Source: Tessaracoccus flavus
GTDB lineage: Bacteria; Actinomycetota; Actinomycetes; Propionibacteriales; Propionibacteriaceae
DNA length: 64,000 bases
NCBI RefSeq assembly: GCF_001997295.1
Contig: NZ_CP019605.1
Coordinates: 3,038,001-3,102,000, forward strand
Direction: 5' to 3'
The notes beneath the pieces are model-generated. The model had not been told where the DNA came from and did not search any database. It saw only the letters and a list, made by a program, of their open reading frames with translations. Shown here piece after piece: positions 41,480 to 50,796 of the stretch (its first letter is position 1; each line of letters starts with the position of its first letter). The translations under genes and the position numbers were made by a program.

Positions 41480-42694
41480 GTGAGCCCGCATCCTGGATCC
41501 CATCCCCACGAGGCCCGCAAGGGCGTCGTCCGCACCTTGCACCACGACGCGGGGGAGCGCCCTCACGTGCTGGTCTGGGAGGTGACGCGCGCCTGCCAGC
41601 TCGCCTGTCGTCACTGCCGCGCCGACGCCTTCACGCGCGCCGACCCGCGCCAACTCACCACCGACGAGGGCAAGGCGCTGCTCGACAGCTTCGCGTCCTA
41701 CGGCACCCCCCGGCCCATCGTGATCCTCAGCGGTGGCGACGCCTTCGAGCGTGACGACCTCGAGGAGCTCATCGCGTACGGCACCAGCATCGGGCTGCCG
41801 ATCGCGCTGTCGCCGTCGGTGACGCCGCTGCTCACCGACGAGCGCCTCGCCTCCGTCCGGGAGGCCGGCGTCAAGGCGTTCTCCCTGTCTCTCGACGGCG
41901 CTACCCCCGAGACCCACGACTCCTTCCGCGGCATCGAGGGCACGTTCGACGACACGATGGCCGCCGCCAAGCTGGTGGTCAAGCACGGCTTCCGGTTCCA
42001 GGTGAACACGACGATCTGCCGCAACAACCTCCGCGAGCTGCCCCAACTCCTTGCGACCGCGATGAGCATGCAGGCGCACATGTGGTACGTGCTGTTCCTC
42101 GTGCCGATGGGGCGCGGCTCCAACCTGGAGCCGCTCAGCCCGGAGGAGATGGAAGACGTCCTGCACTGGCTGCACGACGTCTCCGACCGGATCGCCGTCA
42201 AGGTGACCGAGGCGCCGAACTACCGCCGCGTCGCGATCCAGCGCGACGACGCCCGGACCGCCGGTCAGCCGATGCCCCCGACCGGTGAGCTGCACGCGTG
42301 GCTCACCGAAGAGACCGAACGGCTCCTCGGCGAGGTGACCGAGCGTCGCCCACCCCGGCCCCCGATCGGGGTCAACAGCGGCCGCGGGTTCGCGTTCGTC
42401 GACCACATTGGCGACGTCTACCCGTCGGGGTTCCTGCCGCACCGCTGCGGCTCGGTGAAGGAGCAGTCGTTCCCCGAGATCTACGCCGAGGCCCCGATGA
42501 TGAAGGCGCTGCGCGACCCGTCGTCGTACGAGGGCAAGTGCGGGGTGTGCGAGTTCAACTGGATCTGCGGCGGCTCCCGCGCCCGCGCGCACGCCATGCT
42601 CGGCGACCCGCTGGCCTCGGACCCGACCTGCGTGTGGATCCCCGAGGCGTGGCGCCCCTCGGCCCCCGTGATCCCTGAGCTTGTCGAAGGGTAA
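41480..42694 (+). CDS. Radical SAM/SPASM protein (TIGR04053-like)
   Basis: A 404-residue enzyme. The radical SAM cluster motif CxxxCxxC is at C39, C43 and C46 (CQLACRHC), followed by LSGGDAFERDDL and FSLSLDGATPETHDSFRG. The C-terminal half carries SPASM-type cysteines (HRCGSV, GKCGVCEFNWICGG, DPTC) for auxiliary clusters. The family is related to PqqE/NirJ-type enzymes that modify peptides or tetrapyrroles; the substrate is unknown and no precursor peptide is adjacent. The last seven residues (IPELVEG) and the stop are encoded by a family A repeat, so the C-terminus has been extended or replaced. GTG start, apparently leaderless. Confidence 0.88.
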   Translation: MSPHPGSHPHEARKGVVRTLHHDAGERPHVLVWEVTRACQLACRHCRADAFTRADPRQLTTDEGKALLDSFASYGTPRPIVILSGGDAFERDDLEELIAYGTSIGLPIALSPSVTPLLTDERLASVREAGVKAFSLSLDGATPETHDSFRGIEGTFDDTMAAAKLVVKHGFRFQVNTTICRNNLRELPQLLATAMSMQAHMWYVLFLVPMGRGSNLEPLSPEEMEDVLHWLHDVSDRIAVKVTEAPNYRRVAIQRDDARTAGQPMPPTGELHAWLTEETERLLGEVTERRPPRPPIGVNSGRGFAFVDHIGDVYPSGFLPHRCGSVKEQSFPEIYAEAPMMKALRDPSSYEGKCGVCEFNWICGGSRARAHAMLGDPLASDPTCVWIPEAWRPSAPVIPELVEG

Positions 42695-42792
42695 CGGCCC
42701 CTTTCCTGGCCGCCGCCCTTGGGCACCTGAGCCTGTCCACGTGATCCCTGTGCTTGTCCCCGTGATCCCTGAGCTTGTCGAAGGGTAACGGC
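42671..42792. repeat. Family A repeats at the 3' end of the radical SAM gene
   Basis: ATCCCTGAGCTTGTCGAAGG occurs at 42671 and again at 42767, the first copy being translated as the end of the upstream protein. Confidence 0.85.
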
Positions 42793-42843
42793 CCCTTTCC
42801 TGGCCGCCGCCCTGGTGGTCGGCTCGTCGAGGCGTCAACCCCG

Positions 42844-43130
42844 ACGCCAACGGTCAGGCCCGAACGCCAACGGTTAGGTTCAAACGCCAACCAACCTCCC
42901 CTGACGCCGCCGAGACTCAGCGACGCCCGTGATATTTCGCGGGCGTCGCTGAGTTTCGCCGGCGTTTTTCCTTGTCAGGTGGCGTTTCCGCATATCCGTT
43001 GGCGTCTCGACGTCCGCGTTGGCGTTTGTGGATCTCCGTTGGCGTCCGGCGCCTGGTCCTTGGCGTTTCCTTCCCTGGTTGGCGTTTCCTGCTCCCGGTT
43101 GGCGTTCTGACCGGACGGTTGGCGAATCGT
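42844..43130. repeat. Dyad array 1: 20-bp-phased ACGCCAAC boxes mirrored about a central hairpin
   Basis: Left boxes start at 42844, 42864, 42884 and (degenerate, ACGCCGCC) 42904. Right inverted boxes start at 42958 (GCCGGCGT), 42978, 42998, 43018, 43038, 43059, 43078, 43098 and 43118. Left and right boxes are exact mirror images about 42934.5 for the four inner pairs. The 12 bases between boxes are not conserved. The array lies between the radical SAM and PRPP synthetase genes, flanked by family A repeats. It is not coding: the 20-bp period shifts frame and no start signals exist. Confidence 0.9.
42904..42965. other. Central hairpin of dyad array 1
   Basis: ACTCAGCGACGCCC (42915-42928) and GGGCGTCGCTGAGT (42941-42954) are perfectly inverted; pairing continues inward to CCCGTGA-TATT-TCGCGGG and outward through GAG/TTC to the innermost boxes, giving a stem of about 29 bp with few mismatches. 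Confidence 0.85.
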
Positions 43131-43149
43131 CGGGCGGCGACTAGGAACG

Positions 43150-43200
43150 GGGCCGTTACCCCTTCGACAAGCTCAGGGAGCATGGGGACAAGCTCAGGGA
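43150..43200. repeat. Family A repeat, inverted arm with duplicated tip
   Basis: CCTTCGACAAGCTCAGGGAG is followed by a second GACAAGCTCAGGGA. Confidence 0.8.
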
Positions 43201-43273
43201 TCAATGTGGTACCCGGACATACCGCGGGCGAGGAGCACTAGGCTGAGGCCAACCTGCGGGAAGGGCATCATCC

Positions 43274-44254
43274 GTGAAGGGCATCGTAGTTTTCTCCGGC
43301 TCGGCGCACCCCGAGTTGGCCGACGAGATCTGTGGCTATCTCTCGCTTCGACGATCCGGGGTGAAGATCTCCCGGTTCAGCAACGACTGTCTCCAGGCCC
43401 AACTGCTGGCCAACTGCCGGCAGCGCGACGTCTACATCGTCCAGCCGCTCGTGCCGCCCACTCAGGAGCACCTGATGGAGCTGCTGCTCATGGTCGACGC
43501 GGCGCGCGGGGCGTCGGCCGGACAGATCACCGCCGTCATCCCGCACTACGCCTACGCGCGATCGGACAAGAAGGACTCGTCCCGCATCTCGCTCGGCGGG
43601 AAGCTCGTGGCCGACATGCTGGCGGCCGCCGGCGTCGACCGGGTCCTCACGATGGCTCTCCACGCGCCACAGGTGCACGGGTTCTTCTCCGTCCCGGTGG
43701 ACCACCTGACGGCGCTCGGCGTCATCGCCGACCACTACCGCGAGCGCGACCTCACCAACTGCGTCGTCGTCTCGCCCGACCTCGGCAACGCCAAGCAGGC
43801 CACGCTGCTCGCCCGGCTGCTCAACTTGCCTGTTGCTGCGGGCTCCAAGCAGCGGCTCGCCGACGACCGGGTGGTCATCGACGCCATCGTCGGCGACGTT
43901 TCAGGCAAGCGCGCGATCGTGCTCGACGACGAGATCGCCACCGGGGGATCGATCCTCGAGATCTGCAACCGCCTAGCGGACTTCGGCGCAGAGGAGGTGT
44001 CGGTCGCCTGCACGCACGGCCTCTTCACCGGCAACGCACGCGAGAAGCTCACCTCCTGCGGGAAGATCGTCGAGGTGGTCTCGACGAACACCGTGCCGCC
44101 GCCGTCGAACTTCCCGGGCCTCCAGGTGCTGAGCGTCGCCCAGCTCTTCGCCGAGGCGATCGACCGGATCCACAACGGGCGCTCGGTGAGCAAGCTCTTC
44201 AACGACGTCGACCCGTCCTACGCGCCGCCGCCCCAGCCGGAGGGGCTGTTCTGA
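43274..44254 (+). CDS. prs: Ribose-phosphate diphosphokinase (PRPP synthetase) paralogue
   Basis: A 326-residue class I-like PRPP synthetase, making PRPP from ribose 5-phosphate and ATP for nucleotide, His and Trp synthesis. Conserved regions: IVVFSGSAHPELA, VIPHYAYARSDKKDSSR, HAPQVHGFF, VVSPDLGNAKQA and the PRPP loop IVLDDEIATGGSI. Several positions differ from the housekeeping consensus (SPDAGGVKRA, DDMIDTGGTI, YARQDRK), so it may be a specialised second copy. GTG 43274 has GAAGGG nine bases upstream; TAGGCT at 43239 is a plausible -10. The dyad array lies just upstream. Confidence 0.9.
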   Translation: MKGIVVFSGSAHPELADEICGYLSLRRSGVKISRFSNDCLQAQLLANCRQRDVYIVQPLVPPTQEHLMELLLMVDAARGASAGQITAVIPHYAYARSDKKDSSRISLGGKLVADMLAAAGVDRVLTMALHAPQVHGFFSVPVDHLTALGVIADHYRERDLTNCVVVSPDLGNAKQATLLARLLNLPVAAGSKQRLADDRVVIDAIVGDVSGKRAIVLDDEIATGGSILEICNRLADFGAEEVSVACTHGLFTGNAREKLTSCGKIVEVVSTNTVPPPSNFPGLQVLSVAQLFAEAIDRIHNGRSVSKLFNDVDPSYAPPPQPEGLF

Positions 44255-44260
44255 GGCCGC

Positions 44261-44797
44261 CTAGGACGCGGCCTTCACGAGCGCGTCGAACAGGGCGTTG
44301 ACCTCGTCGGGGCGGCGGTCGATGGGCGTGAACGTGCCCTCCTTGAAGTCGGCGAAGAGGCTGATGTTCACCTCCGCGCGGATGTCGACCATCGAGAAGT
44401 TCGCGACGATGGAGCGCCAGTGCTCGATGGCCCTCACCCCGCCGACGGAGCCGTAGCCGACGAACGCGATCGTCTTGCCGATCCACTCCTCCCCGAGGCA
44501 GTCGACGGCGTTCTTGAGGGCGCCCGGCACGCCGTGGTTGTACTCGGGGGTGACGAAGACGTAGGCGTCGCAGGGGTCGATCGCGTTGCTCCAGGCCTGC
44601 ACCTCCTCCGAGTCGTACTTCCGCTTCGCCGCCATCGGGTGGGTGCCGCTGGTCAGCAGGGGGACGTTGAACTCCTTGAGGTCGATCAGCTCGTACTCGG
44701 CGTCGTCGCGCTTGCTTGCGATCTCATAGACCCAGTCGGCGATCCCGCGTCCGACACGTCCGTCCCTGATGGACCCGACGATGATTCCCACCTTCAT
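44261..44797 (-). CDS. NADPH-dependent FMN reductase family protein
   Basis: A 178-residue flavodoxin-fold reductase: KVGIIVGSIRDGRVGRGIADWV (phosphate-binding loop), FVTPEYNHGVPGALKNAVD (flavin ring motif) and VGYGSVGGVRAIEHWR. Members reduce FMN, azo compounds or quinones with NAD(P)H. GGAAGGAG precedes ATG 44797, chosen over a start eight codons upstream. Convergent with the PRPP synthetase gene, 6 bp apart. Confidence 0.92.
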   Translation of the reverse strand: MKVGIIVGSIRDGRVGRGIADWVYEIASKRDDAEYELIDLKEFNVPLLTSGTHPMAAKRKYDSEEVQAWSNAIDPCDAYVFVTPEYNHGVPGALKNAVDCLGEEWIGKTIAFVGYGSVGGVRAIEHWRSIVANFSMVDIRAEVNISLFADFKEGTFTPIDRRPDEVNALFDALVKAAS

Positions 44798-44837
44798 GGC
44801 TGCTCCTTCCGCAGAACGCATCCCAGGGTAGTGGGGC

Positions 44838-44874
44838 TCTGAGCTTGTCCGTAACCCTTCGACAGCTCAGGGAC
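44838..44874. repeat. Family A repeat, short form
   Basis: CTCTGAGCTTGTCCGTAACC then CTTCGACAGCTCAGGGACC: a minimal palindrome in which the body is deleted. Confidence 0.7.
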
Positions 44875-44880
44875 CGACGC

Positions 44881-46230
44881 TCAGCACTCGATGACGTTGA
44901 CGGCAAGACCGCCGCGGGCCGTCTCCTTGTACTTGACCTTCATGTCCGCCCCGGTCTCGCGCATCGTCTTGATCACCTTGTCGAGGCTGACGATGTGGCG
45001 GCCGTCGCCGCGCAGTGCCGTGCGGGCCGCAGCGATCGCCTTGACCGACGCGATCGCGTTGCGCTCGATGCAGGGGATCTGGACCAGCCCGCCCACCGGG
45101 TCGCAGGTGAGTCCGAGGTTGTGCTCCATCCCGATCTCCGCGGCGTTCTCGATCTGCTGCGGGGTCCCGCCCATCACCGCCGCCATGCTGGCGGCGGCCA
45201 TGGAGCAGGCCGACCCGACCTCGCCCTGGCACCCGACCTCGGCACCCGAGATGGAGGCCGTCTCCTTGAAGATCATCCCAACGGCGCCAGCGGTGAGCAG
45301 GAAGCGAACCACCCCGTCGTCGGAGGCGCCGGGCACAAACCGGGCGTAGTAGTGCAGCACGGCCGGGATGATGCCGGCGGCACCGTTGGTGGGGGCCGTC
45401 ACCACGCGGCCGCCCGACGCGTTCTCCTCGTTGACCGCCAGTGCGAAGAGCGTCACCCAGTCCATCCCGCGCATGGGGTCGGTCGAGTCGCCCTCGACGG
45501 CCAGTTTCGCGGCGAGTTCCGGGGCGCGACGGCGCACCTTCAGGCCGCCGGGGAGGTACCCCTCCGTCGCGATGCCCGCCTGCACGCACTCCTGCATCAC
45601 CGCCCAGATGCGCAGCAGCCCGGCGCGAACCTCGTCCTCGGAGCGCCAGGAGAGTTCGTTCTCCAGCGCGATCCGCGAGATCGACTTTCCGGTGGATTCA
45701 CAGAGTGCGAGCAGTTCGTCGCCGGTGTGGAACCGGTGGCTCACCGCCGTGGTGTCCTGCACCACGCGCGCGTCGCCGTCGGCCGCACCGTCGACGACGA
45801 ACCCGCCGCCCACCGAGTAGAACGTCCGCTCCTGCACCATCTCGTCTCCGGTGTAGGCGCGGAAGATCATGCCGTTGGAGTGCAGCGGCAGCTCCCGGCG
45901 GCGGTGGAGGGTGATGTCGTCGTCCATGCTGAACGCGATCTCGTGGCCGACGTCGAGCAGCCCGGTTTCGCGGGCCCGGGCCACCCGCTCGGCGCCGAGG
46001 CGTGGGTCGACGGTCTCCGGCAGCTCGCCCAGCAGGCCGAGCACGACGGCGCCAGGCGTGCCGTGGCCGTGGCCGGTCGCGCCGAGCGACCCGAAGAGGT
46101 CCGCGGTCACGCGCGTGGCGTCGTTGGGGAGGGAGGCGCGGAAGGTCGCGGCGGCGCGCATGGGGCCGACGGTGTGGGACGACGACGGCCCGATGCCGAT
46201 GCTGAACAGATCGAAGACGCTGAGGGCCAT
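44881..46230 (-). CDS. sdaA: L-serine ammonia-lyase (single-chain, iron-sulfur)
   Basis: A 449-residue enzyme deaminating L-serine to pyruvate. The beta domain starts [21 protein letters not shown] and the alpha domain contains [33 protein letters not shown] and [12 protein letters not shown], including the cysteines that hold the [4Fe-4S] cluster. Length is normal for the fused form. Its ATG overlaps the stop of the upstream MFS gene (TGATG), so both are translationally coupled; the MFS protein is therefore a candidate serine or organic-acid carrier. Confidence 0.96.
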
Positions 46231-47561
46231 CAGTGAAGCCTACGACCCGGCCGGCCCCGGCGGCGGCGGATGCGCTCGACCACCTCGCGCCAGGACGGCA
46301 CGACGACGCCCTGCTCCGCCATGAGCCGGCGCAAGCGGCGACGGCTGGCGAGGATGCCCGCCAGCCCGACGAGGAAGAACGGCGCCTGCAACGCCCAGGC
46401 CCAGCGGAGGTGGTCCGGGGTGTAGGGCCGGCCGTCGGCCACGAGGTCGAGGAAGACGCCCATGACGAGGATCAGCAACGTTGCGCCGCTGAACGAGCCC
46501 GTGATGACCACGCCGTTGGCCGCGCCCAGCCGGGTGAGGGGGAGGTTCGTGCGCGGGAAGTCGAAACCGATCCCGGTGCCCGGGCCCCCGGCGGAGAGCA
46601 CGACGACCAGCAGGATGAGCAGCGGCAGCGGCGCCCGCCCCGGCCACAGCAGGACGACCGCCCAGGCGAGGATGATGGCCCCGATGACGATGAGCGCGAG
46701 GTCGGAGCGTCGGAGAGGGTGACGGCTGGTGAGCGTCCCGATGATGGGACCGGCGACCATCGCTGACACGGCCAGCAGCGACAGCAGGCCACCGGCCGCC
46801 GCCTGGCTGAGCCCCTGCCCGACCACCAGGTACGGCAGGCCCCACATGAACACGAACGCGGTGAAGGAGAAGCCCGATGTGAAGTGGATCCAGAAGCCGA
46901 GCTGGGTGGCCGGGTGCTTCGTGACGCCGAGCACGTTCGAAGGGATCTCGCGGAGCCGGTCGCTGACGACGCCGGGTTCGGTGCCCGGCGGTGCGTTGCG
47001 GATCCAGATGGCGGCGGCAGTCGCAGGCAGCAGGCTCACCGCTGCGGCGATCAGCAGCCCGTACTCCCAGCCACCACTCTTGACCAGCGGCAGCAGCGCG
47101 GCGACTGCGGCGATCTGCCCGAAGGAGGCCGACATGCCCGTGACCTGGCTCAGCAGCGGCACCAGTTGGGGCCGGAACCAGCGGGGCAGCAGGCGCAGGA
47201 CCGAGTTGAAGATGCAGGCGTCGCCGATGCCGAGGAGCACGCGGGCCGCGTAGGCGAGCGGTAGGTCGTCGGAGACGGCCAGCAGCGCCTGCGAGCCCCC
47301 CATGATGAGGGACCCGGCCACCACCATCACGCGCGACCCGACGCGGTCGAGCACCAGGCCGACGGGCACCTGGGCCAGCGCATAGGTGGCCAGTTGCAGC
47401 ACGACGAAGGTGGAGACGATCCCGGGAGTGGTGCCGAAGTGGTCGGCCGCCTCGAGCCCCGCGACGCCCAGCGACGTCCGGTGCATGACGGCCACGCCGT
47501 AGGCGAACAGGCCGACGCCCCAGACGATCCAGCCCATGTGGCCGTATCCAGTCTTGTCCAC
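46230..47561 (-). CDS. MFS transporter coupled to serine dehydratase
   Basis: A 443-residue twelve-span permease. [18 protein letters not shown] in span 1 and [14 protein letters not shown] in loop 2-3 place it with the anion/sugar-phosphate-like MFS groups; the C-terminus is Arg-rich ([14 protein letters not shown]). GTG 47561 has GGAGAGG upstream; an internal ATG lies eight codons later. It overlaps sdaA by one base. The operon suggests uptake of serine or export of a product, but this is inference. Confidence 0.82.
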
Positions 47562-47653
47562 TCTCGCCTCTCCGCGATGATCCTAACCCGAGGATCGCCG
47601 TCGAGAGAGGGACGGTGACGCGGGGTAGTGGTGCCGCTTCCGAGCGGTTTCGA

Positions 47654-47860
47654 TGCTCGAGGCGGGCTGGGCTCAGCGGCGAGCAGCGTTTAGCATCAGC
47701 AGGGGTCGGCCCAAACGCCGGGAGTGTTGGGCCGACCTGTTAGCTGCAGGACAGTGGACGCTGTGCCTGCAGCTTCCATGATCGCCCATTCGATGCGGCG
47801 GTGTATCGGCGGGGCAGCGGTGGTCCTACAGCGTGTAGTGGTAGGCTTCTCTGCCCCGCC
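47654..47860. other. 307-bp intergenic region with four stem-loops, candidate ncRNA or terminators
   Basis: TGCTCG/CGAGCA (47654-47685), GGTCGGCCCAA/TTGGGCCGACC (47704-47737, perfect 11 bp), GCTGCAGG-ACAG/CTGT-CCTGCAGC (47743-47773) and GGCGGGGCAG/CTGCCCCGCC (47808-47860, with an inner CTACA/TGTAG). The last hairpin is 9 bp after the alcohol dehydrogenase stop (minus strand) and could terminate it. No gene is supported in 47562-47868. Confidence 0.5.
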
Positions 47861-47868
47861 GGCTGCAC

Positions 47869-48921
47869 TCAGTCGCCGATGGTGGCGGCGTCGATGACGT
47901 AGCGGTAGCGCACCTTGGAGGCGACGACGTTGTCGTAGGCCTCGTTGATCTCGTCGGCGTCGATGATCTCGATCACCGGGTTGATGCCGTGCTCGGCGCA
48001 GAACTCCAGCATCTCCTGGGTCTCCTTGATGCCGCCGATCTGGGAGCCGGCCAGCACCTTGCCGCCGCCGATGAGGCTGCCGAGGTTGATGGTGCTCGGG
48101 TGCTCGGGGAGGCCAAGGTTGACCAGCGTGCCGTGAGGCTTGATCAGCCGCAGCGTGGCGTCGAGGTCGACGCCGTCGGAGATGGTGGAGATGATGAGGT
48201 CGAAGGTGCCGCGGAGCTTCTTCATGGCGTCGCGGTCCTCGGTGGAGACGTAATCGTCGGCGCCGAGTTTCAGCCCGTCGTCGCGCTTGGCGAGCGTGCG
48301 GCTGAGCACGATGGTCTCGGCGCCCAACGCAGCGGAGATCTGGACGCCCATGTGCCCGAGGCCGCCCATCCCCAGGATCCCGACCCGCTTGCCGGGGCCG
48401 GCGCCGAACCGCTTGAGCGGGGAGTACAGCGTGATGCCGGCACACATGAGCGGCGCGGCGTGCTCGAGCGACGTCTCGTCGGGGACTCGCATGAGGTAGT
48501 CCTCCTCGACGGTGATGCCCTGGGAGTAGCCGCCGTGCGTCGGTTCGCCGTCGCGCCCGATGCTGGCGTAGGTGGCGATGGTGCCGGGGCGGCTGGTGCA
48601 GAACTGCTCCTCGTCGGCGAGGCACATCTCGCACTCGCCGCACGAATCGACGAAGCAGCCGACGCCCACCCTGTCGCCCACCTTGAACTTGGTCACGTCC
48701 GAGCCGACCTTCGACACGACGCCAGCGATCTCATGGCCGCCGACGAACGGGTAGTTGACCTTGCCCCACTCACCGCGCGCGGTGTGGATGTCGGAGTGGC
48801 AGATGCCCGCGTAGGCGATGTCGAGGTACACCTCGGTGGGTCCGGGCTCCCGACGGGTGATCGTCGTGCGCTCGTATCGGCCGGTGGGTGAATCGATGGC
48901 GTAGGCGGCGACGTCTGGCAT
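47869..48921 (-). CDS. Zinc-dependent alcohol/cinnamyl-alcohol-type dehydrogenase
   Basis: A 350-residue medium-chain dehydrogenase. Catalytic zinc ligands are in AGICHSDIH and VGGHEIAG; the structural-zinc cysteines are in CGECEMCLADEEQFC; the NAD(P) loop is GMGGLGHMGVQ. The GxGxxG-type loop and the CHSDIH/GHE sequence resemble the YahK/CAD subfamily, which reduces aldehydes with NADPH. AAGGAGG precedes ATG. A long dyad array starts about 110 bp upstream of its start. Confidence 0.94.
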   Translation of the reverse strand: MPDVAAYAIDSPTGRYERTTITRREPGPTEVYLDIAYAGICHSDIHTARGEWGKVNYPFVGGHEIAGVVSKVGSDVTKFKVGDRVGVGCFVDSCGECEMCLADEEQFCTSRPGTIATYASIGRDGEPTHGGYSQGITVEEDYLMRVPDETSLEHAAPLMCAGITLYSPLKRFGAGPGKRVGILGMGGLGHMGVQISAALGAETIVLSRTLAKRDDGLKLGADDYVSTEDRDAMKKLRGTFDLIISTISDGVDLDATLRLIKPHGTLVNLGLPEHPSTINLGSLIGGGKVLAGSQIGGIKETQEMLEFCAEHGINPVIEIIDADEINEAYDNVVASKVRYRYVIDAATIGD

Positions 48922-49030
48922 GGGTGGGTCCTCCTTGAACGACTGCCCACGATGCTACTCCGCGCCCGAGGCGTTGCTCGGCCCTCCTCCGGCCGGCCGT
49001 CCGTCCGCCCGCCCGTCGTCGCCGACGCCG

Positions 49031-49400
49031 ACGCCAACGGGTTCAGCGAAACGCCAACGGGGAGAGCCGAACGCCAACGGGGAGAGCCAAACGCCAACAG
49101 CGAGAGCCAAACGCCAACAGCGAGAGGCAAACGCCAACGGAGAGCGCCGAACGCCAACGGAGAGGGCGACTCGCCACCCAGACCCATCGACGCCTGTGAG
49201 ATCTCGCGGGCGTCGATGAGTGTCGTCGGCGAGTCCGATTGTCTGTTGGCGTTCGGTCCGGAGCGTTGGCGTTTCGCCTCGGCCGTTGGCGTTTGCCGCG
49301 CACGGTTGGCGTTCCGTCGGCTGGGTTGGCGTCGGGGAGGATCCGGTTGGCGTTTCCGCCGCGCCGTTGGCGTTTCGGTCGATCGGTTGGCGTCAGAGCA
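49031..49400. repeat. Dyad array 2: 20-bp-phased ACGCCAAC boxes mirrored about a central hairpin
   Basis: Left boxes start at 49031, 49051, 49071, 49091, 49111, 49131 and 49151 (seven exact ACGCCAAC, period exactly 20 bp) plus a degenerate one at 49171. Right inverted boxes start at 49225 (degenerate), 49245, 49265, 49285, 49305, 49325, 49346, 49366 and 49386. The inner six pairs are exact mirrors about 49201.5; one base is inserted before the outer right boxes. Left spacers resemble each other (GRGAGCC-like), right spacers do not. It occupies the 513-bp gap between the alcohol dehydrogenase and the secreted metalloprotease-like gene. Open frames across it are artefacts. Confidence 0.93.
49168..49235. 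other. Central hairpin of dyad array 2
   Basis: CATCGACGCCTGTGAGA (49185-49201) pairs with TCTCGCGGGCGTCGATG (49202-49218), 17 bp with two G-U pairs; outside it GACTCGCC (49168) pairs with GGCGAGTC (49228). The GACGCCYGTGA / TCGCGGGCGTC core is shared with array 1. Confidence 0.88.
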
Positions 49401-49434
49401 CGACGACGACGCGCCTCAGCAAGCAGGGCGGCGG

Positions 49435-50268
49435 TTACTCGCCGGCCAGCCCTTCAAGCCACAGGGGAGCGTCCTCTCCGGGCAGGGGCTCTTCGGCTCC
49501 CTCTGCCGGGAGAGCGCAGTCGGGGGTCGCCCCGGGGGCCGGGCCGAACTCCTTGCCACCGAAGATGTAGGTCTTGGCGTAGTCGTAGTACGCGTCGTGC
49601 TCGCCGGTGTCGTACGGGTTGTCCAGCGCGCAGCGCCCGACGTAGTAGCCGACGACGTCGGCGAACGTCTCGGTGATCTTGCTGCCCGCGTAGTTGCTGA
49701 AGCGACCCTCCCGCGCGTACAGCTCCTTGAACACCTGCCAGTACTCGGGGTTCTCGAAGCGGTCGGAGTTGCGGACGTGCGCCAGTTCGTGGGCGACGAG
49801 CCGCGTGAGCCGGCCCTCATCCCCGCTGTCCAGGGCCCGCTGGAACTTCGAGAAGTCGAGCGTGACGTAGCTGGTCCTCGTCAGGCTCCAGTCTCCCCAG
49901 GCGTAGCCGCTGATCGAAGCTGCGTTGATGCCGACGTTGCCGCCCTGCTTCGCGAGCAGGTCCGTGCGGTAAGTGGTGCACTCCATCGCGTCGAGCGTTT
50001 CCCACAGGATCTTGATGGAGGGCCGGCGCTCGTCGGTCCACTGGCTCCCGGCCAGCTTGAAGCCGTAGTTGGCCGTCAGCTGCGCCTGGATCTCTTCGAT
50101 GGAGGAGTCCGCGGGGTACTCGTGCGTCGTGGCGCAGGGGACGGGGATGCCCGTGACGGGGAGGACCGGTTCGGGGGCCAGGGGGAGGGCGGAGGCGCTT
50201 GTGGACGCGACGATGGAACCGGCCGCGACGGCGATCGTTGCCGTCAGCGTGGCGAGCCACTTGCGCAC
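49435..50268 (-). CDS. Secreted putative zinc metalloprotease, HELAH motif
   Basis: A 277-residue exported protein. Residues 1-27 are a signal peptide (AVAAGSIVASTSASA). A zincin motif VAHELAHVRNSDRF gives H160-E161-x2-H164, and TETFADVVGYYVGR about 35 residues later offers E200 as third ligand with an Asp, a gluzincin-like arrangement. Cys45, Cys97 and two C-terminal cysteines may form disulfides. No named family is recognised. GTG 50268 follows GGAGGGGAC. Array 2 lies immediately downstream of its stop. Confidence 0.7.
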   Translation of the reverse strand: MRKWLATLTATIAVAAGSIVASTSASALPLAPEPVLPVTGIPVPCATTHEYPADSSIEEIQAQLTANYGFKLAGSQWTDERRPSIKILWETLDAMECTTYRTDLLAKQGGNVGINAASISGYAWGDWSLTRTSYVTLDFSKFQRALDSGDEGRLTRLVAHELAHVRNSDRFENPEYWQVFKELYAREGRFSNYAGSKITETFADVVGYYVGRCALDNPYDTGEHDAYYDYAKTYIFGGKEFGPAPGATPDCALPAEGAEEPLPGEDAPLWLEGLAGE

Positions 50269-50439
50269 GTGGGCGTCCCCTCCCGAGATGTCTTCCGAGC
50301 CAAGATTCTCTCAGGATTCTCAGGAAGTCAAACGACGTCGATGCGCCTGTTGATAAGTGGGCAGGCGCCCTGCGCGAAGAACTGGCGACAAGGCGCGACG
50401 CAGCGTCATCCCACTGGCCGCAACGCGAGGGCGCGGCCG

Positions 50440-50451
50440 TAGGATGGCTGC
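50440..50451 (+). promoter_or_regulatory. Predicted leaderless promoter -10 box
   Basis: TAGGAT plus six bases precede ATG 50452; no Shine-Dalgarno. Confidence 0.45.
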
Positions 50452-50796
50452 ATGGATGATCGAATCCCTCGCGACGAGGTCGAAGCCTTTCTCGAGGTGC
50501 GCCGAGAGCAGGGCCGGGAGATCGAGCCTGCCCTGATCGACTCGATGACCGCGAAGATCGAGGGCGTGGTCAGACGGCGATACCAGGCCGAACTGCAGTC
50601 GAAGACGCGGCAGGATCTGGCCTCCAAACAGGGTCAGGGTGCCCGGCTCACCGTTGCGATCATTTCGCTGGTCATGGCGATCCCGCTGACAGCCATCGCC
50701 AGCGGGATGGGACTGGTTGGTCTGCTCATCGTGTGGGCCGGCATCGTCGCGGTCAACATCGCTTTTGCCTTGCGCCGCCCGCCGACCGCCGACTAG
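50452..50796 (+). CDS. Hypothetical small membrane protein, 114 aa
   Basis: An N-terminal charged helical region of about 60 residues (DEVEAFLEVRREQGREIEPALIDSM) precedes two closely spaced membrane segments (LTVAIISLVMAIPLTAIASG and GLVGLLIVWAGIVAVNIAFAL). Small actinobacterial proteins of this layout are common; no function is known. It lies upstream of the tad operon on the same strand, separated by 136 bp with a DnaA-box-like site, and is probably a separate transcription unit. Confidence 0.7.
   Translation: MDDRIPRDEVEAFLEVRREQGREIEPALIDSMTAKIEGVVRRRYQAELQSKTRQDLASKQGQGARLTVAIISLVMAIPLTAIASGMGLVGLLIVWAGIVAVNIAFALRRPPTAD

What the first reader, a model, noticed from the sequence alone, without database searches (positions are those of the whole stretch)
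49031..49400. Array 2: a 370-bp dyad of 20-bp-phased boxes
Seven exact ACGCCAAC boxes at exact 20-bp steps are followed, across a hairpin, by eight inverted GTTGGCGT boxes. The inner six pairs are exact mirrors about 49201.5. The 12 bp between boxes are not conserved, so the box and its phase are what is kept. All boxes fall on nearly one face of the helix, which suggests cooperative protein binding; alternatively mirrored boxes pair, giving a ladder of short helices in cruciform DNA or RNA. I know of no named element with this layout.
Basis: seen in the sequence. Interest (0 to 1): 0.88.

Follow-up and report, generated by a model that had tools for sequence, protein, structure and literature searches.

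The report
Hairpins flanked by 20-bp-phased box arrays
An actinobacterial genome carries dozens of copies of a symmetrical DNA element, a small hairpin with rows of one 8-letter word spaced about 20 letters apart on both sides, sitting mostly just behind genes; it looks like a docking site for a DNA-binding protein that nobody has identified yet.

Summary
The array is real and is one of at least 77 such dyads in this Tessaracoccus genome. Each has a ~15-bp hairpin core with ACGCCAAC boxes on both sides, pointing at the core, at 20-bp steps (545 of 590 steps). Neighbouring boxes differ by 5.6%, their spacers by 48%. Mirrored spacers are no more alike than unmirrored ones, so the arms look like separately selected protein-binding rows, not a ladder of pairing helices; only the inner stem covaries. 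All 66 strictly scored dyads are intergenic: 35 convergent, 28 tandem, 3 divergent, outer edge a median 44 bp from stop codons. Three sister species carry the same box at 19-20 bp around an unrelated hairpin. Some orthologous sites in relatives are empty. Dyads are thinned around the replication terminus, strongly in one relative, more weakly here. No RAYT transposase was found, and no description in the word searches made. Best reading: dispersed arrays for one unidentified, cooperatively binding chromosomal protein that insulates gene ends and/or marks the chromosome outside the terminus. The protein and the function are inferred, not shown.

The parts
49031..49158 (+). Left arm of array 2: seven exact ACGCCAAC boxes, steps 20 bp
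49171..49178 (+). Degenerate innermost box in phase (TCGCCACC, 6 of 8)
   Evidence: sequence; phase position k=-1
49182..49221 (.). Core hairpin: 17 pairs with one mismatch, loop GATC, centre 49201.5
   Evidence: RNA fold -29 kcal/mol, z -5.79; family alignment
49225..49232 (-). Mirror of the degenerate innermost box
   Evidence: sequence
49245..49393 (-). Right arm of array 2: eight exact inverted boxes, steps 20 bp except one of 21
42844..43105 (.). Array 1, second dyad of the family in the window (three exact boxes left, five exact right; centre 42934.5)
47869..48921 (-). Context: zinc alcohol dehydrogenase gene, begins 109 bp beyond the left edge of array 2
   Evidence: Pfam ADH_N and ADH_zinc_N
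49435..50268 (-). Context: gene without a family match, its stop codon 41 bp beyond the right edge of array 2
   Evidence: gene; no Pfam or NCBIfam match

Best explanation
The dyad is one copy of a dispersed family of protein-docking arrays. One sequence-specific chromosomal protein (unidentified) binds the 8-9-bp box (A)ACGCCAAC. Neighbouring protomers touch across the fixed ~20-bp step, so each arm carries a cooperative row of protein pointing at the central hairpin. Copies lie mostly just behind stop codons, favouring converging genes, where protein and hairpin can insulate the two transcription units; thinned out around the terminus, they may also give the protein a map of the chromosome. 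Shown by sequence: architecture, conservation of box and phase over spacers, independence of the arms, 3'-end location, terminus depletion, same box around another hairpin in sister species, absence at some orthologous sites. Inferred: the protein, its cooperativity, and the insulating or mapping role.
For: 545 of 590 steps are exactly 20 bp. Adjacent units differ 5.6% in box and 48.4% in spacer, 390 pairs (boxes had to match 6/8 to be counted). Found by core alone, 77 of 83 core hits have boxes in phase on at least one side; the 6 without are all at the threshold score 21/30. No mirror signal in spacers. Same box, other hairpin and other spacers in G020, G079, G019. 66 of 66 intergenic; 35 convergent and 3 divergent, against 40 and 64 among gene pairs without a dyad in the same stretches. 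G020-type context 11 convergent, 11 tandem, 2 divergent, 3 unreadable of 27. Far-from-dnaA depletion.
Against: No binding protein identified and none searched for directly. 8 dyads could be placed in sampled relatives and 4 of them are missing in at least one, so single copies are dispensable. Most sampled genus members show no such arrays with the detector used. Terminus depletion is weak by the far-half measure in G000 (30 of 76, p 0.04) and not significant by it in G079 (5 of 15, p 0.15). A neutral repeat tolerated only at gene ends would also give the location bias.
Confidence: 0.6

Rival explanations
1. Chromosome-position marker alone, working like Noc or SlmA sites: protein bound at the dyads outside the terminus couples division or segregation to replication; the gene-end location is only where arrays are tolerated.
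For: G020: 3 of 26 dyads in the half far from dnaA, and one arc of 51% of the chromosome holds at most one dyad (0 of 20,000 shuffles); G079: such an arc is 62% (0.00065); G000: 13 of 76 in the far third, 25.3 expected, p 0.001, arc 12.6% (0.03). Copy number like that of Noc sites (~70, PMC4726725, passages). dnaA placed.
Against: Convergent bias and nearness to stop codons are not predicted by it. Density of convergent gaps along the chromosome was not available as a control. Noc and SlmA sites are single palindromes. Dyad lists for G020, G079 and G000 were put together from partly cut listings.
Confidence: 0.25
2. Bidirectional transcription terminator acting at RNA level: the hairpin, and perhaps the repeated C/A-rich box in the incoming transcript, stops RNA polymerase from both sides; no DNA-bound protein.
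For: Stem covariation, stable stem (-29 kcal/mol), 3'-end location, and both converging transcripts meet the same strand of the box.
Against: The core has no T-rich tail (the only terminator-like match in 48900-49500 is a 5-pair stem at 49225-49239, 0.5 expected by chance). RNA action does not explain an exact 20-bp step over many units.
Confidence: 0.12
3. Selfish or neutral interspersed repeat (MITE/REP-like) that spreads by copying and survives at gene ends.
For: Missing sites in relatives; subfamily pairs of 87-96 of 100 identical core bases at unlinked loci, in both orientations, with extra shared flanking repeats.
Against: Boxes stay while spacers diverge. No Y1 transposase/RAYT (PF01797) in the genome; other transposase families were not tested. 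No constant outer ends: arms run from 0 to 11 boxes.
Confidence: 0.15
4. Ladder of short helices: mirrored boxes pair in cruciform DNA or RNA.
For: The 391-nt strand folds at -242.9 kcal/mol against -177.4 for shuffles, z -10.95.
Against: No mirror signal in spacers, no matched box changes, unequal arms, no covariation beyond the inner stem. Inverted conserved boxes pair well in a fold prediction anyway.
Confidence: 0.03

Closest known systems
REP/BIME extragenic palindromes, GTAG and CGTC super-families (PMC3733652: abstract, outline and passages seen)
   Same: Many copies, extragenic, palindromic, mostly between converging or unidirectional genes and close to 3' ends; species-specific types
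   Different: REP stems are 5-13 bp with an unpaired tag; here a longer stem without such a tag is flanked by long box arrays at 20-bp steps, and the box, not the hairpin, is shared between species
Stoperators of cluster A mycobacteriophages (PMC9283540: abstract and outline seen)
   Same: Dispersed asymmetric binding sites outside promoters, proposed here to block transcription
   Different: Phage genomes and a phage repressor there; chromosomal inverted arrays here; blocking not tested
Noc and SlmA binding sites (PMC4726725: passages seen)
   Same: Tens of chromosomal sites, under-represented near the terminus
   Different: Single palindromic sites there; arrays of an asymmetric box around a hairpin here; no link to division tested
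Iteron and centromere arrays of plasmids (recalled, no call)
   Same: Short boxes in direct repeats about two helical turns apart, bound cooperatively
   Different: Usually one array per replicon; here dozens of inverted pairs of arrays on a chromosome

Membership tests
REP, GTAG type | Cognate RAYT (Y1 transposase, PF01797) in the genome | tested here: not met
   0 matches in G000; control found it in 5 of 14 named genomes
REP, GTAG type | Unpaired GTAG tag at one end of the palindrome | tested here: not met
   No constant GTAG beside the core in the 66 aligned copies, read by eye
REP, CGTC type | Stem 8-9 bp, loop 4-5, unpaired CGTC tag | tested here: not met
   CGTC lies inside the stem and is paired; definition from PMC3733652 passages
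REP in general | Located between converging or unidirectional genes, near 3' ends | tested here: met
   63 of 66 dyads not divergent; median 44 bp to stop codons
Noc/SlmA-type sites | Depleted around the terminus | tested here: met
   clear in G020, weaker in G000; G079 significant by arc and far third but not by far half
Noc/SlmA-type sites | Bound by a division regulator | not testable with these tools
   needs ChIP and genetics
Stoperators | Repressor-bound sites that stop elongation | not testable with these tools
   needs binding and transcription assays
Intrinsic terminator | G+C-rich stem followed directly by a T tract | tested here: not met
   no such match at the core; one weak match at 49225-49239
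Known RNA family (Rfam) | Match over the gathering score | tested here: not met
   42500-50500 searched; only RF03984 at 27.4 bits (gathering 70), by array 1
Transposon ends or MITE | Constant outer ends with target duplication | tested here: inconclusive
   Arms vary from 0 to 11 boxes, so no constant outer ends; target duplications were not analysed

The most novel reading that the evidence does not exclude
A new class of bacterial chromosome-organising site: inverted, ~20-bp-phased arrays of one asymmetric box around a hairpin, read by a cooperative DNA-binding protein that seals gene ends and marks the chromosome outside the terminus. The box can be replaced between lineages (GYTGGTRTC, CGGTTGAGC or GGCCAGC in sister species) while the step of about two helical turns stays.
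Probability: 0.3. Interest if true: 0.88.

Novelty: new variant of a known kind. Interest (0 to 1): 0.72.

Why it matters
If one protein fills these arrays, it would be an architectural factor of actinobacteria that has not been described in what I could search, with at least 77 ready-made landing platforms behind genes. Relatives without a dyad at the same site give natural controls, so the effect of a single dyad on read-through, supercoiling or chromosome position can be measured directly.

Tried and rejected
Ladder pairing of the arms: contradicted. Known RNA family: none over threshold in 42500-50500. Viral or plasmid source: 0 matches in IMG/VR to three exact boxes at exact 20-bp steps, no phage match, one plasmid match that is a GACGCC/GAACGCC simple repeat in Burkholderia. 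RAYT: none.

Universal presence in the genus: not supported. In 42 loci (765,279 bases; 20 unnamed genus genomes and two named Tessaracoccus loci, which may overlap with the unnamed) one chain of four exact 7-mers with diverged spacers was found at 19-21 bp, no more than some other periods gave.

The order-wide pattern matched 32 of 391 genomes (9 of 36 genus rows), but several matches in other genera are plain tandem repeats; its backward-read control is not empty either: 4+6 in the own genome, 16+13 in G010, 0+6 in G155 and 0+5 in G020. In G010 and G155 these are arrays of another box; in the own genome I take them to arise from boxes followed by CG (not checked).

An early idea that hairpin orientation follows the replichore came from the asymmetry of my search pattern and was dropped when the dyads proved symmetric. 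Paper searches by box letters gave 1,205 and 89 papers, of which 20 each were listed and none looked relevant by title; topic searches gave 1, 0 and 0 papers. The library is open-access only.

Full report
OBSERVATION. The finding is real. The window is 3038001-3102000 of a 3,222,890-bp single-contig genome. Array 2 has seven exact ACGCCAAC boxes (49031-49158) and eight inverted ones (49245-49393). Left steps are all 20 bp; right steps are 20 except one of 21. The inner five pairs mirror about 49201.5, the next two about 49202.0. The genome holds 151+155 exact ACGCCAAC-N12-ACGCCAAC pairs, the backward-read control none. By the neighbouring alcohol dehydrogenase the nearest named records are Tessaracoccus lapidicaptus (80%) and T. 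bendigoensis (78%); the own record may be left out of that list, so the genus name is an inference.

A FAMILY OF AT LEAST 77 DYADS. Hits guided 71 stretches; each listing was cut at about 100 places, so the part after 2.42 Mb is less completely covered. A strict score found 66 dyads in these stretches and the window. A second scan by the core alone, in the same stretches, found 83 hits at 21/30 or better; 77 have a box at the expected phase on at least one side, and the 6 without all score exactly 21. Arms hold 0 to 11 boxes, the two arms of a dyad correlate 0.21, and 545 of 590 steps are 20 bp (22 are 21, 17 are 19, 3 each 18 and 22).

WHAT IS KEPT. Neighbouring units of one arm differ by 5.6% in the box and 48.4% in the spacer (390 pairs); 413 of 545 units have an exact box (a box had to match 6/8 to be counted). 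A count without that rule: of 509 box positions inside arms, 455 match at 7/8 or better and 43 below 6/8. Spacer identity is 0.432 between mirrored units (124 pairs), 0.433 between non-mirrored units of opposite arms (527), 0.42 between elements and 0.54 within an arm (701). Of 188 mirrored box pairs 64 have one variant and 10 have two, none of the 10 with the same change. On 36 copies (thinned from 66 at 80% identity) pairing exceeds shuffles mainly at single positions of the inner stem (z 4.4, 3.3 and 2.4 at 14, 11 and 10 bases from the centre); outer core, boxes and spacers show no excess. The arms thus look like rows of separate binding sites. The inner stem is a true hairpin in RNA or cruciform DNA, or is kept symmetric by quasipalindrome correction (a recalled process).

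WHERE THEY SIT. With my own gene caller, 66 of 66 dyads are intergenic: 35 convergent, 28 tandem, 3 divergent. Gene pairs without a dyad in the same stretches are 40, 221 and 64 (Fisher p 3e-9 for convergent against divergent, 0.002 for divergent against the rest). The outermost box is a median 44 bp from a stop codon (98 cases) and 160 bp from a start codon (34 cases); in tandem pairs 22 of 28 lie nearer the stop.

RELATIVES. Of 24 same-genus genomes, two have exact phased pairs: G020 (13) and G006 (1). A looser triple pattern matches 9 of 36 genus rows, own included. G020, G079 and G019 carry a compact form with the same box around an unrelated palindrome, with 24, 13 and 1 matches at up to 3 mismatches among 39 genus genomes. 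In the 27 distinct dyads that I read from these three, arms step 19 (27 arms), 19-20 (21), none (3), 19-20-19 (2) and 20 (1); their context is 11 convergent, 11 tandem, 2 divergent, 3 unreadable. Sister species show other boxes at a similar step: GYTGGTRTC, 72 triples in G010, one of which equals the T. bendigoensis array in L166 letter for letter; CGGTTGAGC in G010 at 19-21 bp, 29 triples of its first six letters; one dyad-like GGCCAGC chain in G003. Random samples do not show the feature as general in the genus.

GAIN AND LOSS. For 8 of 66 dyads both flanking genes could be placed within 4 kb of each other in a sampled relative (12 rows). Four have at least one relative with a shorter gap and no boxes: array 2, own gap 513 bp against 56 (T. 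lapidicaptus) and 55 (G022); 59946, 516 against 119 (G024); 804682, 596 against 150 (G021) and 178 (G001); 1170118, 1166 against 502 (G019). Two carry boxes in the relative too: 2550133 in G020 (L151), and 2961108 upstream of gyrB in G079 (L264). The other two, and further rows for array 2 (L163, L166), have wider or equal gaps without boxes and are not clean empty sites. In G020 a dyad likewise lies about 250-310 bp upstream of the aligned start of gyrB (the gyrB stretch of L091 is partial and matches the gyrB models below their cut-offs). G014 has an array between two tandem genes where G000 has a 53-bp gap. Subfamily pairs agree at 87-96 of 100 core bases at unlinked places and in both orientations.

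TERMINUS. The best DnaA match lies at 2,946,373 in G000, 31,110 in G020 and 343 in G079. In G000 13 of 76 listed dyads (66 strict plus 10 added) lie in the third of the chromosome farthest from it (25.3 expected, p 0.001), but 30 of 76 in the far half (p 0.04). In G020 3 of 26 lie in the far half (p 4e-5), and one arc of 51% of the chromosome holds at most one dyad (0 of 20,000 shuffles). In G079 5 of 15 lie in the far half (p 0.15) and 1 of 15 in the far third (p 0.02); one arc of 62% holds at most one (0.00065). In G000 that arc is 12.6% (0.03) (the origin was set to position 1 for G020 and G079; the lists come and may miss copies). Density of convergent gaps was not available as a control.

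A BREAKPOINT AT THE HAIRPIN. A 6,774-bp segment, 98.5% identical, is shared by G000 (2572082-2578855) and G006. One end falls at the foot of a dyad core, leaving half a dyad in G006. Sequence beyond the other end in G006 looks recombinase-like by my own reading (not searched). It is one case; it fits a palindrome that breaks.

MECHANISM. The most economical reading is one DNA-binding protein that fills the phased boxes cooperatively. The dyad symmetry lets each of two converging genes meet the same layout. Whether the outcome is insulation, positional marking, or both cannot be told from sequence. The covarying stem and the 3' location favour insulation, the terminus depletion favours marking, and the empty sites show that single copies are dispensable. 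The boldest reading is that lineages replace the box and share only the step.

KNOWN KINDS. It resembles REPs in location and palindromy (PMC3733652, abstract and passages) but fails the RAYT and tag tests. It resembles Noc and SlmA sites in number and terminus depletion (PMC4726725, passages) but not in form. The likeness to stoperators (PMC9283540, abstract) is an analogy.

Noticed in passing
window 42755-42790 and 43160-43200: Short repeats of the kind CCTTCGACAAGCTCAGGGA flank array 1; I recall this as a widespread extragenic repeat, untested here. L119 and L121 (another genus of the family) show 19-bp GCCAACT repeats next to the same motif.
   Followed up: no
L166 5199-5284 and G010: A species matching T. 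bendigoensis has many arrays of another box, GYTGGTRTC, at 19-20 bp, and a third box, CGGTTGAGC, beside GTGACGAAACC sequence.
   Followed up: partly
L083 2993 and G006:C6:127191-133964: A 6.8-kb segment shared with another species at 98.5% ends at the foot of a dyad hairpin.
   Followed up: partly
flanks of 481583, 547932, 1710793, 1730844, 2299147, 101770 in G000: Members of one dyad subfamily share further repeat tracts outside the arms, such as CTGACTTCCAGGTGAGGGA, so copies look mosaic.
   Followed up: no
L091 4838, L009, L114: A dyad lies roughly 250-310 bp upstream of the aligned start of gyrB in three species.
   Followed up: partly
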